DNA of 64,000 nt from Sphingomicrobium nitratireducens (GTDB taxonomy: Bacteria; Pseudomonadota; Alphaproteobacteria; Sphingomonadales; Sphingomonadaceae). The translations under genes were made by a program, and so were the position numbers. The notes under the pieces were generated by a model that did not search any database, was not told where the DNA came from, and saw only the letters and a list, made by a program, of their open reading frames with translations. The stretch covers positions 1-64,000 of the forward strand of contig NZ_JANJZA010000001.1 in assembly GCF_026157035.1 (NCBI RefSeq). The letters run 5' to 3'. How positions within the stretch are numbered: position 1 is the first letter of the stretch; each line of letters starts with the position of its first letter. This document shows, piece after piece, positions 56,014-61,394 of the stretch.

Positions 56014-56139
56014 ATGAAAGTTCGTAATTCTCTCAAGTCGCTCAAGTCGCGCCACCGCGATTGCCGGGTCATCCGTCGCCGCGGTCGCGTTTACGTGATC
56101 AACAAGACCAACCGTCGCTTTAAGGCGCGCCAGGGCTAA
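56014..56139 (+). CDS. rpmJ: 50S ribosomal protein L36
   Basis: A 41-residue basic protein ([17 protein letters not shown], ending [12 protein letters not shown]). It has only one cysteine (Cys17), so it is the zinc-independent C-minus form of L36, usual in alphaproteobacteria. Start and stop give the exact family length. It has its own promoter-like sequence and terminator and is not part of a ribosomal-protein operon. Confidence 0.97.
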
Positions 56140-56168
56140 CAGCCCCGGGCACACGGTTGCGTGAAACG

Positions 56169-56197
56169 GGCGCGTCCTTTCGAGGGCGCGCCTTTTT
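56169..56197 (+). terminator. Rho-independent terminator after rpmJ
   Basis: GGCGCGTCC (56169-56177) pairs with GGGCGCGCC (56184-56192) with one T-G pair and a 6-base loop, followed by five T. It separates rpmJ from the convergent kinase gene. Confidence 0.9.
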
Positions 56198-56205
56198 CGT
56201 GCCCG

Positions 56206-57084
56206 TCATCCGCGTGCGAGGTGCGCCTCGAGAAGGTCGAGCGCCTCCCCGGAGCGCGCGAAATCGAGCGGGCGTGCGAATCGGTAGACGTCTGCCTGCC
56301 GCGCGAGATCGAGGCAGCGTTCGAAGATCCACGCGTCGCCGCCATGCCACTGGTTGGCGACCTCCCAGCGATAGGCATTGTCGAGCACCAGCCGTGCGGC
56401 CTCGGCGCCCGTGACCTTCTCGATCCGCGCTTCCCCGACCTCGAGCAGGTAGATGCGCTTCAATTGCAAGGGCGGCGGCGGACGCATCGCCTCGCCCTTC
56501 GCCAGCGGCATCTGCCACTTGCCCTCGCCCGCGACCACCGGTTCGAGGGTTCCGCGATCGACGCCCAGCGCGTCGACCGCCGCGTCCCACAATTTCACCC
56601 TCGGAATACCGCGATGGACCGCGGGGCCTGCCGGGTCGATCGCACAGATATCGTCGCACAGGATATCGTGCCCCCGCGCCGCCAGCATCGCGGCCAAGGT
56701 CGACTTGCCGGCCCCGCTCGGCCCGACGAAGGCCGCCGCCCCGCCATCGAGCGCGACCGCATTGGCATGAAGCGGCAACCTGCCGCGCTGGACGATCAGT
56801 GCCGCCGACACAGTGCCGAGCAGCCAGGCGCGGATCTCGTCTCCCGCGCGGCCCGGCGGCGCATGGATGGTCACTGCCTCGCCGCCCTCGACTTCGAAGC
56901 GAATGCCATCGAGTTCGGCGACCAGCGTATCGCCTTCGCGCGCGACGTTGTAGAAATCGGGCCGCGCCAGCGCCGATGCGCGCTTCGTGCGCACCACGAC
57001 ATCGGGCTGGCCTTCGCCCGGCGGCAGCTCGGGAAGCGCAAGGTCGCTGTCGATCACGAGGCCGAAGGCGCGGGTCAGCGGCAT
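56206..57084 (-). CDS. HPr-kinase-like lasso peptide C-terminal serine kinase
   Basis: A 292-residue protein with the fold pattern of HPr kinase/phosphorylase. LPLHANAV carries the family histidine (His106), Walker A is GPSGAGKST (121-129) and ILCDDICAID carries the paired aspartates (144, 145). There is no HPr/PTS locus nearby; instead the gene is divergent, 47 bases from lasso-peptide genes. In paeninodin-type clusters a kinase of this fold phosphorylates the side chain of the precursor's C-terminal serine, and the precursor here ends in Ser. AAGGA precedes the ATG at 57084. Confidence 0.82.
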   Translation of the reverse strand: MPLTRAFGLVIDSDLALPELPPGEGQPDVVVRTKRASALARPDFYNVAREGDTLVAELDGIRFEVEGGEAVTIHAPPGRAGDEIRAWLLGTVSAALIVQRGRLPLHANAVALDGGAAAFVGPSGAGKSTLAAMLAARGHDILCDDICAIDPAGPAVHRGIPRVKLWDAAVDALGVDRGTLEPVVAGEGKWQMPLAKGEAMRPPPPLQLKRIYLLEVGEARIEKVTGAEAARLVLDNAYRWEVANQWHGGDAWIFERCLDLARQADVYRFARPLDFARSGEALDLLEAHLARG

Positions 57085-57131
57085 CCATCTTCCTTGCACC
57101 GCCGCCCGCAAGGAGGCTAGCCCCTTGGGTC

Positions 57132-57422
57132 ATGTCCGCGCCGCTCCTCGACGACACCAGCCGCATCGTCCAGCGAAAGACCCTGCCCAGCGGGGAAATC
57201 GATGGCGAGCTGCTTGCACTCGACGTCAAGCGCGGCACCTGCCTCGGACTCGACCGGGTCGGGACCGACATCTGGCGCCTTGCCGCGCAGCCGATCACGC
57301 TCGCCACGCTGATCGAGAAGCTGGTCGAGGACTATGACGCGACCCCGGACGAGGCACGCGCCGACGTCTTCCCTTTCGTCGCCGAGCTGGTCGAAGCGGG
57401 TTTGCTCGACCTCGTGCCATGA
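57132..57422 (+). CDS. Lasso peptide B1 protein, PqqD-like RiPP recognition element
   Basis: A 96-residue winged-helix protein of the PqqD family (LDVKRGTCLGLDRVGTDIW, then TLATLIEKLVEDYDATPDEA). In split-B lasso systems it binds the precursor leader and delivers it to the B2 peptidase and cyclase. Its stop overlaps the start of the exporter gene by 4 bases (ATGA), so it opens the biosynthetic operon. Confidence 0.9.
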   Translation: MSAPLLDDTSRIVQRKTLPSGEIDGELLALDVKRGTCLGLDRVGTDIWRLAAQPITLATLIEKLVEDYDATPDEARADVFPFVAELVEAGLLDLVP

Positions 57423-59068
57423 AAGACGTGAGGGAGCTTCTCGCCGATTTTCTCGCGCGCACCCGCGCTGCGCCGCTGCTGTTCGCACTGCTGCTCGCAG
57501 GTGCGCTGGTGGAAGGGCTCGGCATCCTCCTCCTCGTGCCCCTCGTCGCGCTCGCCGCAGGCGAGGCGCCGCCCCCGACCTGGATGCCATTCGCGCCCAA
57601 ATTTTTCGACGCGCCCGAGCGCGCGCTGTTCGTCGCCGCATTTTTCTTCCTCGCCGCCATGGGGCTGCGCTCGGCGATCCTCTACGCGCGAGACCGGCTG
57701 CGCGTGCGCGCCGTCACCGCCTACGAACAGGGGCTCAAGCTGCGCCTCCTGTCGGGCGTCGCCGCGCAGGGCTGGCGTTTGGCAAGCAGGCTCGGCCAGG
57801 CACGCCTCCAGCGCAGGATGCTGGTCGACACGCCGCGCGCAATCGTCGCGCTCCACTACGCGCTTCAGGCTGCAGTCGTGGCCGTGATGATCGCGGTGCA
57901 GGGCCTCGTGGCGCTTTACCTTTCCCCCGCGCTGACGCTGGTCGCGGGCGGGCTGATGCTGGTCGGCATCCTCCTCGCCTGGCCGTGGGTGCGCGCGGGC
58001 CAGCGCCGCGGCCTGTCGCTCGGCGAGGCTGCCGCCGACAGCAGCGAAGAGGGTTTCCGTCTCTACGCCAGCCTCAAGAGCGCGCTCGCCGAAGGCGCCG
58101 TCCTGCGCTTCCTCGACCGCTACGCCGCCAGCGCGAAGCGTCTCGCGGGCGAAGAAATCGCGCTCGAGGCAGGCCGTGCGGGCGCGCGTGCCATCATGGC
58201 GCTGGTCGCCGCGACCGCCGCGGTCGTCCTGATCCTCGCAGGCCTGCTGTGGCTCGATCTCGACCTTGCCATCCTCGTTCCCCTCCTCGTCCTGTTCGCG
58301 CGGCTGAGCGGTCCCGCCCAGCAACTCGTTCAGGCGCTCCAGGGCATGGCCGCATTCGGCCCCGCCTTCGCACCCATCGCCGCCCAGGCGGGCAGTGCGG
58401 TGCCATCCGCGACACGCTCCGTGCCCCCGCGCGACTGGTCGCGCCTCGACTTCGACCGCGTCACCCACGAGGCAGACGACGGCTTCACGCTCGGCCCGCT
58501 CGACCTCTCGCTCGCGCGCGGAGAATGGGTCGCGCTCGAAGGGGTGTCGGGGGCGGGCAAGACGATGCTGGTCGATCTCGTCGCCGGGTTGATCGCTCCC
58601 GATGGCGGCACGATCCGGCTCGACGGCGAGCCAATCGACCTCGCGACGCTCGACGGCTGGCGCGAAGGCCTCGCCTATGCCGGGCAGGACGAAGTGCTGT
58701 TCGCGGCCAGCCTCGCCGACAATCTCGGCGGCGATCCAGGCAAGGCGGCTGCTGTCACCGGCCTCGAAGCGCTGCTCCAGCGCCTTCCCGACGGGCTCGG
58801 CACGATGCTCGGCGAAGGCGGCGCGCGCCTGTCGGGCGGCGAGCGGCAGCGCGTCGCGATCGCCCGCGCGCTCTTGCGCCACCCCCGCCTCCTGATCCTC
58901 GACGAGGCCACCTCGGCGCTCGATCTGGCCGCCGAAAAGCAAATGCTCGACAGGCTGCGCGCCTATGCGCCCGACCTGTCGGTTCTCTTTGTCAGCCATC
59001 GCCCCCAAGCCCGTGCGCTTGCCGATCGCGTCGTCGCGTTGCAGCGGGGTCGCACCGAACTGGGTTAA
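57419..59068 (+). CDS. Lasso peptide ABC exporter (membrane plus ATPase domains)
   Basis: A 549-residue half-transporter. The N-terminal membrane domain has about six helices (to residue 300), followed by an ATPase with Walker A GVSGAGKT, the signature LSGGERQRVAIARALL, Walker B LLILDEATSALD and switch VSHRPQA. This is the D protein of lasso clusters, which exports the mature peptide and gives self-immunity. It dimerises in the inner membrane. Its stop is followed by 93 bases before the precursor gene. Confidence 0.9.
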   Translation: MKDVRELLADFLARTRAAPLLFALLLAGALVEGLGILLLVPLVALAAGEAPPPTWMPFAPKFFDAPERALFVAAFFFLAAMGLRSAILYARDRLRVRAVTAYEQGLKLRLLSGVAAQGWRLASRLGQARLQRRMLVDTPRAIVALHYALQAAVVAVMIAVQGLVALYLSPALTLVAGGLMLVGILLAWPWVRAGQRRGLSLGEAAADSSEEGFRLYASLKSALAEGAVLRFLDRYAASAKRLAGEEIALEAGRAGARAIMALVAATAAVVLILAGLLWLDLDLAILVPLLVLFARLSGPAQQLVQALQGMAAFGPAFAPIAAQAGSAVPSATRSVPPRDWSRLDFDRVTHEADDGFTLGPLDLSLARGEWVALEGVSGAGKTMLVDLVAGLIAPDGGTIRLDGEPIDLATLDGWREGLAYAGQDEVLFAASLADNLGGDPGKAAAVTGLEALLQRLPDGLGTMLGEGGARLSGGERQRVAIARALLRHPRLLILDEATSALDLAAEKQMLDRLRAYAPDLSVLFVSHRPQARALADRVVALQRGRTELG

Positions 59069-59161
59069 ATCTCGCAAACCTAGTCCATTATGGACAGATT
59101 CAACCCTCCGAATTAATAAAAGCCAAGCGCCGGCGTAGGCGGCGATGCTCGGAGGGGATCA
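59069..59161 (+). promoter_or_regulatory. Leader region of the precursor gene
   Basis: An A/T-rich patch in an otherwise GC-rich cluster. It contains a small palindrome GTCCATTATGGAC (59083-59095) and an in-frame 8-codon mini-frame MDRFNPPN starting at 59091. GGAGGGG (59151-59157) lies 4 bases before the precursor GTG. The distance from the exporter gene leaves room for an internal promoter or a processing site that would raise precursor mRNA relative to the enzymes; no firm -10/-35 pair is seen. Confidence 0.45.
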
Positions 59162-59290
59162 GTGTCAGCTCGGGAACAGCGGAGGAAGCCGTGGTCGACG
59201 CCGCGCCTGCGCATCATGGACGCGAAGAACGCGCGCATGCCCGGGGGATCGCCCTTTCAGGAAGGCAATTCCACCAAGGGAAAAAGCTGA
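59162..59290 (+). CDS. Lasso peptide precursor (A protein), GTG start
   Basis: A 42-residue peptide with a strong GGAGGGG ribosome site. The leader (MSAREQRRKPWSTPRLRIMD then AKNAR) has the P-x-L pair (P14, L16) and an Asp (D20) exactly five residues before the predicted cleavage, as in paeninodin. Predicted core: MPGGSPFQEGNSTKGKS, 17 residues, with core Glu9 (E34) placed for a 9-residue macrolactam from the core N-terminus and an 8-residue tail ending in Ser, the expected phosphorylation site. Residue -2 is Ala rather than the usual Thr. Alternative cleavage before G28 (ring to position 7) is possible. It overlaps the cyclase start. Confidence 0.78.
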   Translation: MSAREQRRKPWSTPRLRIMDAKNARMPGGSPFQEGNSTKGKS

Positions 59291-60975
59291 CCGCGCCCAT
59301 CGGTTGCTGGGAGCCAGGCAACGCTCCCACGCCGCCATCCGGCGCCTCCAGCGCGGGCGGTCGCTGGTGCTGGCTAGATGCCGACCTCGACAACCGCGAC
59401 GCGCTCGCGAGCGAACTGGACCTTCCTCCCGATACCGATGACGCGACACTCGTCCTGGCGTTGTGGCGCGGGCGGGGCAGTGCGATGTTCGCGGCGTTGC
59501 GCGGCGAATTCGCCATTGCCCTGTGGGACGGCGAGCGCCTGATCATCGCCCGCGATGCCCTCGGACGCCGACCGCTTTTCCTGAGACGCCGCGACGGATT
59601 GCACTTCGGCCCCTCGGCTCGGGCGCTGGCCGGCGAGCGCCCCGAAGCCGACCCGGTGCGCCTCGCCCAATTCCTCCTCACCCTCCCCGAGCGCGGCGCG
59701 CGCAGCCATTTTGCCGGCGTCGACCGCGTGCTTGCGGGCGAGTGGATCGAGGCGCGCGCGCCCGACCGGATCGAACGTCGCCGCTGGTGGCGCCCCGACC
59801 TCTCGCGCCTGTCGATCGGGCTCGAGGAGGCGGCGGGCGAAGCGACCCGGCTGCTCGACCGCGCGATCGGCGGCATGGCGCACGGGCGCACCGCGATCCA
59901 GCTGTCGGCCGGGCTCGACAGCAACCTGCTGCTCGACCGCATGGCAGCGCGCGGCGTGCTCCCCTCGGTCGCGATCACCGGCGCGCCCGACGGGCCGGTC
60001 GAATGCCCGCCCGCCATGCTGTTCGACGAAACCCGTCTCGCGGCCGAAGCGGCGGCGGCGGCCGGCGTCCCGCACGTCCGTGCCGGCGCGCCGCCGAGCG
60101 GCCTGGCGCTCGCCGTGGCATGTTTCGACGACGTCGAACGCCCGCTCTTCAACCCATCGAATCTCGGCTGGATCGACGCGACGCTTTCAGCCGCGCGGGC
60201 GGACGGTGCGGCCGTTATGATCGAAGGCCTGTGTGGCAATTACGGTGTCAGCTGGGACCCGCCCAAGGCGCTTGCCGGGATGATCTCGGATCGCGACTGG
60301 TCCGGCGCTGCCGCCCTGGCGGGAGGCATTCGAGGCAATGCGCTCGAAGCCCTGCCGCGCGCGGTGCGGCGCCGCCTCGGCGGCGCTGCCGCCTGGCGCC
60401 TTTCGACCCCGCGTTTCGTGCGTCCCGGCGCGTTCGCCGACCAGGCACTCGCCCCGTTCCTCGAGCGCGGCCTGTTCGTCGACGACCCTGCCGATCGCAG
60501 CTGGCAGCCCCGGCGCAGGCTCGAGGACTTTTATCTCGACCTCGACCAGGCGAGCATCCTTCGCGCCCACAAAGCGCGCCATGGCGTGCGGCTGCGCGAC
60601 CCGTTCGCCGATGTCGAACTGGTCGAATTCACGCTGCGCCTGCCGACCCGCATCTTCCGAACGGGAAGCGAACGGCGGCGACTTGCCAAGGCGATGCTCT
60701 CGAAGCGCGTTCCCGACGCCATCCGTCGCGGCGACGTTCGCGCGGTGCAGGGAGCCAACTGGCGCGCCGCGATGAAGGCGGAGCGCGATACCTACGCCGC
60801 GCTCGTCGCCTACGCCCGCGCGCACCGCTGGCTTCCACGCCTGATCGACCTCGACGCCCTGGGCGAAGGAATCGCGCGATGGCCGCGCGAAGACACGAGC
60901 TTCGGCTCGGTCGCGGCCTCGCATCAGATGCGCGCATTGGTCGCGATAGCCTTCGTCCGCTGGGTCGAGGAATGA
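59287..60975 (+). CDS. Lasso peptide macrolactam synthetase (asparagine-synthetase-like C protein)
   Basis: A 562-residue protein. An N-terminal glutaminase-like domain (LRGEFAIALWDGERLIIARD) is followed by the ATP-binding synthetase domain with the PP-loop LSAGLDSNLLLD (S207-S212). In lasso systems it adenylates the core Asp/Glu side chain and closes the ring with the core N-terminus. No ATG or GTG fits the family N-terminus; the best candidate is CTG at 59287, 5 bases after AAGGGA and overlapping the precursor stop as CTGA. The start is therefore less certain than the gene. It ends with an ATGA overlap into the B2 gene. Confidence 0.88.
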   Translation: MTAPIGCWEPGNAPTPPSGASSAGGRWCWLDADLDNRDALASELDLPPDTDDATLVLALWRGRGSAMFAALRGEFAIALWDGERLIIARDALGRRPLFLRRRDGLHFGPSARALAGERPEADPVRLAQFLLTLPERGARSHFAGVDRVLAGEWIEARAPDRIERRRWWRPDLSRLSIGLEEAAGEATRLLDRAIGGMAHGRTAIQLSAGLDSNLLLDRMAARGVLPSVAITGAPDGPVECPPAMLFDETRLAAEAAAAAGVPHVRAGAPPSGLALAVACFDDVERPLFNPSNLGWIDATLSAARADGAAVMIEGLCGNYGVSWDPPKALAGMISDRDWSGAAALAGGIRGNALEALPRAVRRRLGGAAAWRLSTPRFVRPGAFADQALAPFLERGLFVDDPADRSWQPRRRLEDFYLDLDQASILRAHKARHGVRLRDPFADVELVEFTLRLPTRIFRTGSERRRLAKAMLSKRVPDAIRRGDVRAVQGANWRAAMKAERDTYAALVAYARAHRWLPRLIDLDALGEGIARWPREDTSFGSVAASHQMRALVAIAFVRWVEE

Positions 60976-61394
60976 GCAAGCGTCCCGGCCCCCTGCTCCT
61001 CGCCGAGACGTTCGGCGACCTCGTCGCGGCCAGCCTCGCGCTGCGCCTCAGATCGTTCGAAGCGATCGTGTCGGGTCGCGACGCGCCTGCGAACCTTCCG
61101 CAGGTCGCACCCCACGACGCGGTGATGCTCGAACGTGCGCTCAAGGCCTGGAACCGCCGTCTGCCGTGGCGCACCTTGTGCTTCGAGCAAGGCCTGGCCG
61201 CCGAGCGCTGGCTGAGGCGCCGCGGGCTTGCCTCGCGGCTTCACTACGGCGCGGCGGGGCGCGGCGAAGGACCGGTGGCGCATGTCTGGGTGACCTCGGG
61301 CACGGTGCCGGTCGTCGGGTGCGAACAAGCTGGCGAATTCGTCGAACTGGCGCAATTCCCGCATGCAGAAGCGCCGCAAAGCCGGGAAAATTGA
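60972..61394 (+). CDS. Lasso peptide B2 leader peptidase (transglutaminase-like)
   Basis: A 140-residue cysteine protease of the lasso B2 family. Catalytic Cys70 lies in RTLCFEQGLAAERWLRRRG, His104 in PVAHVWV, and the C-terminal acidic residue in the VGCEQAGEF region. With the B1 protein it removes the precursor leader. It overlaps the cyclase stop by 4 bases and closes the cluster. Confidence 0.92.
   Translation: MSKRPGPLLLAETFGDLVAASLALRLRSFEAIVSGRDAPANLPQVAPHDAVMLERALKAWNRRLPWRTLCFEQGLAAERWLRRRGLASRLHYGAAGRGEGPVAHVWVTSGTVPVVGCEQAGEFVELAQFPHAEAPQSREN

What the first reader, a model, noticed from the sequence alone, without database searches (positions are those of the whole stretch)
56206..61394. 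Complete lasso-peptide cluster with an HprK-like kinase and a hidden GTG-initiated precursor
Six genes fit one pathway: a divergent kinase, a PqqD-like B1, an ABC exporter, a precursor, an asparagine-synthetase-like cyclase and a B2 peptidase. The precursor is only 42 codons and starts with GTG, so routine gene callers could miss it. Seen directly: the leader P-x-L-x3-D followed by five residues and then a core with Glu at position 9 and a C-terminal Ser. Known: paeninodin has the same leader spacing, a 9-residue ring and C-terminal serine phosphorylation by a kinase of this fold. Inferred: the product is a phosphorylated 17-residue lasso peptide with core MPGGSPFQEGNSTKGKS, starting with Met, and an Ala at -2 where Thr is usual.
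Basis: partly seen in the sequence, partly recalled or inferred. Interest (0 to 1): 0.88.

Follow-up and report, generated by a model that had tools for sequence, protein, structure and literature searches.

The report
Kinase-tailored lasso peptide gene cluster
A sphingomonad bacterium carries an intact, easily overlooked gene set for making a probably phosphorylated knotted peptide, and it belongs to a family of such sets in which the usual cutting signal and parts of the enzyme pocket that reads it appear to have changed together.

Summary
In detail: window 56206-61394 holds six intact genes of a kinase-tailored lasso-peptide cluster. The GTG-started precursor is real. Eight further same-genus clusters have the same gene order; the nine carry 13 homologous precursors between exporter and cyclase: Ala(-2) in 13, Met1 in 12, Glu9 in 11, C-terminal Ser in 11. 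A database that holds this genome's B1 lacks the precursor. Phosphorylation and threading remain inference.

Both sites match published Thr(-2)-pocket residues of McjB. I propose a naturally re-cut pocket. Against it: this is mainly one clade; L066 and L198 have Ala(-2) with the unchanged pocket, and L203 and L207 have Thr(-2) with the changed post-Cys residue. Verdict: new variant of a known kind, paeninodin-like lasso clusters.

The parts
56206..57111 (-). lasso-precursor kinase K (301 aa from the TTG of the mechanical ORF list; an ATG lies at codon 10, so the start is uncertain); H115, GPSGAGKS 130-137, D153 D154
57132..57422 (+). B1 / RRE (PqqD-like, 96 aa); Cys37 stands where TbiB1 and the lasso chaperone of 9x90 have Tyr and McjB has F23
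   Evidence: PF05402 55.4 bits
57419..59068 (+). ABC exporter D (549 aa)
59162..59290 (+). precursor A, GTG start; leader VSAREQRRKPWSTPRLRIMDAKNAR, core MPGGSPFQEGNSTKGKS
59287..60975 (+). lasso cyclase C (asparagine-synthetase-like, LSAGLDS; start uncertain: CTG 59287 or GTG 59191)
   Evidence: PF00733 46.5 bits, PF13537 44 bits
60972..61394 (+). B2 leader peptidase (140 aa; Cys70 followed by Phe71, His104 followed by Val105)
   Evidence: NF033537 43.7 bits over cut-off 33; PF13471 55.9 bits

Best explanation
This is an intact paeninodin-like lasso-peptide cluster. B1 binds the WxxP leader of the 42-residue precursor; the HprK-like kinase phosphorylates the C-terminal Ser17 of the linear precursor; B2, with B1 completing its S2 pocket, cuts between Arg(-1) and Met1; the cyclase joins the Met1 amine to the Glu9 side chain around the tail; the ABC protein exports the product. 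The confidence given below is for this pathway. A further step, which I hold at about 0.42 on its own, is that the pocket that normally grips Thr(-2) has been re-cut for Ala(-2): the RRE aromatic residue has become Cys (Val in sister clusters), the B2 residue after the catalytic Cys has become Phe and the one after the catalytic His has become Val. Shown here: the genes, the precursor family, the register-consistent Ala(-2)/Met1/Glu9/Ser pattern and the residue differences. Inferred: every enzymatic step, the phosphorylation, the threaded fold and the pocket mechanism.
For: Domains and conserved kinase residues. Nine same-genus clusters with order K(-) B1 D A C B2 and 13 homologous precursors between D and C (L032); the search pattern asked for W/Y-xx-P but not for Ala(-2). 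PbaA, a paeninodin-like precursor, has W-15 (PMC13381572 passages), which fixes the register. RRE site Cys 15/Val 5 in 20 Ala(-2) loci against Tyr in 12 of 12 Thr(-2) loci. Of 85 B1 columns compared it is the only one that is at least 90% one residue in the Thr set with no overlap with the Ala set; in B2, 5 of 124 columns are at least 90% one residue in the Thr set with overlap of 0.1 or less, two of them the residues right after the catalytic Cys and His. McjB F23 and L151, two of four modelled Thr(-2)-pocket residues (PMC11420955 section 10 read), align with the B1 column and the post-Cys column. PadeB1 Y38A binds leader with near-normal affinity but gives very little or no cleavage (PMC5067487 passages); that Y38 is the same column is my inference from its spacing to W49 and the 9x90 alignment.
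Against: For the pocket step: the Ala/Cys-Val loci are one clade (21 rows with L172, 100/99, B1+B2 tree; 19 rows, SH-aLRT 99, cyclase tree), so the correlation is mostly one event and independent pairs give no support (sign test p=1). Ala(-2) occurs with the unchanged Tyr/Leu/Ala pocket in L066 and L198. Thr(-2) occurs with Phe after the catalytic Cys in L203 and L207, and L207 has Phe at the RRE site. L135 has Cys at the RRE site but keeps Leu and HAW; L043 has Ser(-2), Tyr, HVW. McjB S181 falls on an Ala that does not differ and M108 could not be aligned. Five loci with Cys or Ala at the RRE site (L035, L162, L168, L189, L190) gave no plausible precursor and so test nothing. For the pathway: 2 of the 13 precursors do not end in Ser; the 8-residue tail has no aromatic plug; there are no expression or mass data.
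Confidence: 0.72

Rival explanations
1. Same cluster, but B2 cuts one residue later, after Met: core PGGSPFQEGNSTKGKS with a Pro1-Glu8 ring and Arg(-2).
For: In L032 and L158 the same cut would give the canonical Thr(-2)-Met(-1)|Gly1 and an 8-residue ring.
Against: The window would have Arg(-2) and a secondary-amine Pro1; position -2 would vary over the 13 precursors (R, T, L, G, Q) while the Ala before it is constant; W would lie at -16, not at the -15 of PbaA; many precursors of the sister AGSAE group would need 7-residue rings.
Confidence: 0.12
2. The residue differences in B1 and B2 are ordinary divergence of one clade and have nothing to do with Ala(-2); B2 simply tolerates Ala.
For: One clade; L066 and L198 have Ala(-2) with the unchanged residues; L203 and L207 have Thr(-2) with Phe after the catalytic Cys.
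Against: Of five B1 columns nearly invariant in the Thr set only the pocket Tyr is switched completely; two of the few switched columns coincide with pocket residues published independently; in BsfA, I(-2)A completely blocked cleavage, so Ala is not freely tolerated there (PMC10368454 Results read).
Confidence: 0.4
3. The product is a branched cyclic, unthreaded phosphopeptide and not a lasso.
For: The tail GNSTKGKS (and GTSGKS in L133) has no large residue except Lys.
Against: Split B1/B2 and a lasso-type cyclase; a phosphorylated Ser could add bulk (inference).
Confidence: 0.15
4. The kinase acts on another residue (Ser5 or another ring residue), as BsfK acts on Ser3.
For: BsfK and LppK phosphorylate Ser3 (PMC10368454 Results read; PMC13381572 passages).
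Against: C-terminal Ser in 11 of 13 precursors of the syntenic clusters and in 25 of 31 pattern-selected Ala(-2) candidates, three of the 31 probably spurious; BsfA ends in Asp.
Confidence: 0.12

Closest known systems
Paeninodin and paeninodin-like clusters of Bacillota (PadeA/K, ThcoK, PbaA)
   Same: split B1/B2, HprK-like kinase, WxxP leader with W at -15 (PbaA), C-terminal Ser as kinase target; the 9-residue ring of paeninodin is recalled
   Different: the five Bacillota loci compared have Thr(-2), RRE Tyr, B2 CL and HAW; here Ala(-2), Cys37, CF and HVW, Met1, and a GTG-started precursor between D and C
SyanA/SyanK cluster of Sphingobium yanoikuyae (PMC9266682 passages)
   Same: proteobacterial cluster with a kinase that phosphorylates the C-terminal Ser
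   Different: I did not retrieve its sequence, so its -2 residue and pocket were not compared
Bradymonas bsf cluster (PMC10368454 abstract, Results, Discussion read)
   Same: kinase cluster with a non-Thr(-2) leader; its authors infer a changed B1/B2 selectivity
   Different: Ile(-2), Ser3 phosphorylation, C-terminal Asp; its B1 keeps Tyr37 at the pocket site
Microcin J25 McjB (L188; model in PMC11420955 section 10)
   Same: peptidase whose modelled Thr(-2) pocket has F23 (RRE) and L151 (B2), the two sites that differ here
   Different: fused B protein, Thr(-2); no kinase among the six features of the 5 kb stretch fetched

Membership tests
lasso peptide biosynthetic cluster | transglutaminase-like B2 leader peptidase | tested here: met
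   NF033537 43.7 bits over cut-off 33, PF13471 55.9 over 26
lasso peptide biosynthetic cluster | lasso cyclase of the asparagine-synthetase type | tested here: inconclusive
   PF00733 46.5 over 21; lasso model NF033535 hit at 56.6 bits, below its cut-off 525; same place in nine syntenic clusters (L032)
lasso peptide biosynthetic cluster | RRE (PqqD-like B1) | tested here: met
   PF05402 55.4 over 23.4; best solved relatives are a lasso PqqD chaperone and TbiB1; lasso model NF033536 50.5, below cut-off 80
lasso peptide biosynthetic cluster | precursor with [Y/W]xxPxL leader and Asp/Glu at core 7-9 | tested here: met
lasso peptide biosynthetic cluster | Thr at leader -2 (94% of leaders per PMC11420955; typical, not strictly defining) | tested here: not met
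   Ala(-2) here and in the sister clusters; such exceptions had been predicted within the class
lasso peptide biosynthetic cluster | threaded, isopeptide-closed product | not testable with these tools
   needs mass spectrometry and structure
paeninodin-like kinase-tailored lasso peptides | HprK-like kinase with His, GxxGxGKS, Asp-Asp | tested here: met
paeninodin-like kinase-tailored lasso peptides | C-terminal Ser in the core | tested here: met
   window core ends in Ser; 11 of 13 precursors of the nine syntenic clusters
paeninodin-like kinase-tailored lasso peptides | phosphate on that Ser | not testable with these tools
   needs MS/MS
paeninodin-like kinase-tailored lasso peptides | WxxP with W at -15 | tested here: met
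   Trp in all 13 syntenic precursors although the pattern also allowed Tyr; at -15 in the register chosen; PbaA W-15

The most novel reading that the evidence does not exclude
The window belongs to a lineage of lasso clusters in which leader residue -2 and the composite S2 pocket were re-cut together: Thr to Ala in the leader, aromatic to Cys/Val in the RRE, Leu to Phe and Ala to Val beside the catalytic Cys and His of B2. That makes a naturally orthogonal RRE/peptidase pair that should cut Ala(-2) leaders and refuse Thr(-2) leaders. Bolder: with no aromatic plug in the tail, the kinase-made C-terminal phosphoserine is itself part of the steric lock of a Met1-Glu9 lasso.
Probability: 0.42. Interest if true: 0.7.

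Novelty: new variant of a known kind. Interest (0 to 1): 0.52.

Why it matters
Thr at leader position -2 is found in 94% of lasso leaders (PMC11420955), and its pocket, shared between the RRE and the peptidase, has been called elusive (PMC10368454). A lineage in which the leader residue and both halves of the pocket differ gives a natural test of that pocket and a possible orthogonal leader/peptidase pair for peptide engineering. It also adds a family, found in 19 of 71 genomes of one genus, of predicted phosphorylated lasso peptides whose precursor genes are short, in part GTG-started, and in the window's case absent from a very large protein database.

Tried and rejected

Rows dropped before counts: the 20-versus-12 comparison left out L066 (Ala-2, Tyr), L172 (Ala-2, Phe, HVW), L176 (Val-2, Phe, HVW), L043 (Ser-2, Tyr, HVW), L036 and L060 (register unclear), L044, L049, L050, L166 (another leader type), L035, L162, L168 (no plausible precursor; one implausible pattern hit each in L035 and L168), L128 (same contig and precursor as L053), and other loci where no precursor was assigned. 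With L066 counted the B1 column is 20 of 21. Thr(-2) was read in register 15 for nine loci and in register 16 for L178, L065, L171. A further 20 loci were taken to test the rule: 8 gave a usable precursor. Thr(-2) in five (L196, L201; register 16 in L197, L203, L207; RRE site Tyr in four, Phe in L207; after the catalytic Cys, Leu in three but Phe in L203 and L207; after the His, Ala in four and Cys in L196); Thr(-2) only in register 17 in L202 (Tyr); L198 against the rule (Ala-2, Tyr, CL, HAW); L194 unclear. Twelve gave none, among them the only two with a non-aromatic RRE site (L189 Cys, L190 Ala), so no new Cys/Val locus could be tested. Fisher p 3.7e-8 (L066 included) ignores shared ancestry and is not used as proof. 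The one search list required Ala(-2) and so cannot show that Ala is conserved; that rests. One search listed only cores ending in S, A or T; one search had no such filter for cores with an acceptor.

Literature: Zhu 2016 (JBC), Kretsch 2023 and Hegemann 2018 are not held; whether they report the co-change is unknown to me. That I saw no report of it rests on the listings of searches and on the passages and sections read. PMC12670498, PMC13352647, PMC8498205 and PMC10885120 were seen as passages only.

Full report

The precursor. The 42-codon ORF starts with GTG behind GGAGGGG and has the third-position GC of a coding frame. Of 71 genomes of the same genus 49 have a B2 match at E<=1e-5 (some are B2-like proteins with no cyclase nearby). 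I read the B2 locus of 44 of these 49 (the window). Nineteen genomes have a precursor with Ala at -2 beside B2/cyclase genes. Nine clusters, the window's included, have the order K(-) B1 D A C B2; all nine carry one or two homologous precursors between D and C, 13 in all: Trp in the WxxP motif and Ala(-2) in 13, Met1 in 12, Glu at core position 9 in 11, C-terminal Ser in 11 (L032). The patterns asked for W/Y-xx-P and an acceptor, not for Ala or Met. The nearest relative in the B1+B2 tree, L132, also starts its precursor with GTG. A recent paper names Gly, Cys, Ser and Ala among observed first residues and adds Asn (PMC12670498 passages); Met1 was not mentioned in the passages I saw.

Register. 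Cleavage could be set 15 or 16 residues after the start of WxxP. Fifteen gives Ala(-2) throughout, Met1 in 12 of the 13, and rings of 8 or 9; sixteen gives a variable -2 residue, Pro1 in the window, and 7-residue rings in several sister precursors. PbaA, a paeninodin-like precursor, has W-15, and Trp is nearly invariant at this place in that class (PMC13381572 passages).

The pocket. Duan et al. state that the RRE forms part of the S2 pocket for residue -2, with a Tyr (FusE Y33) suspected to engage Thr(-2), and mention predicted Ile/Val/Ala(-2) leaders (PMC10368454, Results and Discussion read). I tabulated this RRE site and the B2 active-site neighbours against the -2 residue. In 20 loci with Ala(-2) the RRE residue is Cys (15) or Val (5); in 12 loci with Thr(-2) it is Tyr in all. 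In B2 the residue after the catalytic Cys is Leu in 12 of 12 Thr loci and Phe 12, Ile 4, Tyr 2, Met 1, Leu 1 in the Ala loci; the residue after the catalytic His is Ala in 12 of 12 and Val in 19 of 20. Over all columns, one of 85 in B1 is at least 90% one residue in the Thr set and never shared with the Ala set, and it is this one; in B2 five of 124 have overlap of 0.1 or less, including both active-site neighbours. A model of the microcin J25 complex puts Thr(-2) between McjB F23, M108, L151 and S181, with a rescue experiment at M108 (PMC11420955 section 10 read). I fetched McjB and aligned it: F23 falls on the B1 column and L151 on the post-Cys column; S181 falls on an Ala that does not differ between the sets; M108 could not be aligned. 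That C150 and H182 are McjB's catalytic residues is recalled; the letters agree.

How far this goes. The Ala/Cys-Val loci are one clade in trees of B1+B2 (trait columns removed; 21 rows with L172, 100/99) and of the cyclase (19 rows, SH-aLRT 99; L156 and L172 fall outside). So I can show a lineage signature at published pocket positions, not repeated coevolution. Results against a strict rule: L066 and L198 have Ala(-2) with Tyr, Leu and HAW; L203 and L207 have Thr(-2) with Phe after the catalytic Cys; L207 has Phe at the RRE site; L135 has Cys with Leu and HAW; L043 has Ser(-2), Tyr and HVW. L172 and L176 (Phe, HVW, Ala or Val at -2) group together in the cyclase tree (SH-aLRT 100) and may be a second lineage, but their cores do not end in Ser and their register is uncertain. 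A further 20 loci gave eight usable precursors: five Thr(-2), all with an aromatic RRE residue, one more Thr only in register 17, one exception (L198), one unclear (L194), and no new testable Cys/Val locus.

Mechanism. By analogy with PadeK, ThcoK and SyanK, which phosphorylate the C-terminal Ser of the precursor (PMC9266682 passages), and with BsfB1, which helps both kinase and peptidase (PMC10368454), the order would be: RRE binding, Ser17 phosphorylation, B2 cleavage at Arg(-1)|Met1, Met1-Glu9 macrolactam, export. None of this was tested. The tail GNSTKGKS has no aromatic plug, so threading is the least certain step.

Verdict. A sound first reading. The cluster is a member of the kinase-tailored, paeninodin-like lasso clusters, already known from a Sphingobium, and a variant by its Ala(-2) leader, Met1 core and altered pocket residues.

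Noticed in passing
window 59191-59290: The cyclase lacks an ATG/GTG/TTG near its conserved start: CTG 59287 overlaps the precursor's stop (CTGA), or GTG 59191 (behind GGAGGA) lies inside the precursor in another frame. The cyclase frames of L146 and L148 appear to run on across the precursor's end in the same way (read from the N-termini).
   Followed up: partly
L128/L053, L130, L131, L135, L137, L139, L152, L156, L160: A second precursor group in the same genus (AGSAE or AGAAE, then a ring closed by Asp at 8 or 9, ends mostly K/N/R-S), with a different gene order where enough contig is held, also Ala(-2).
   Followed up: partly
L146 9880-10272, L148 9914-10320: Two precursors per cluster; all four cores hold two Cys residues that could form a disulfide.
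   Followed up: no
L144, L155, L159, L161: B2-like protein beside an HprK-like kinase with no cyclase found in the stretch: perhaps a different peptide system of the HprK/PqqD kind.
   Followed up: no
L034 3682-3822 and 7911-8051: The 46-residue precursor is present in two copies of identical translation, 4 kb apart.
   Followed up: no
L066 15855-16067, L198 12373-12597: Ala(-2) leaders with an unchanged Tyr/Leu/Ala pocket: an apparent second route to Ala(-2).
   Followed up: partly
window 56014-56139: Short basic ORF resembling ribosomal protein bL36 (name recalled, not from a call) just beyond the kinase's 3' end, with a terminator-like hairpin at 56168-56193 between them.
   Followed up: no
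B2 alignment: The position of McjB's Asp194 is Gly in all 12 B2 proteins aligned there, so McjB's presumed triad is not kept as such in this group.
   Followed up: no
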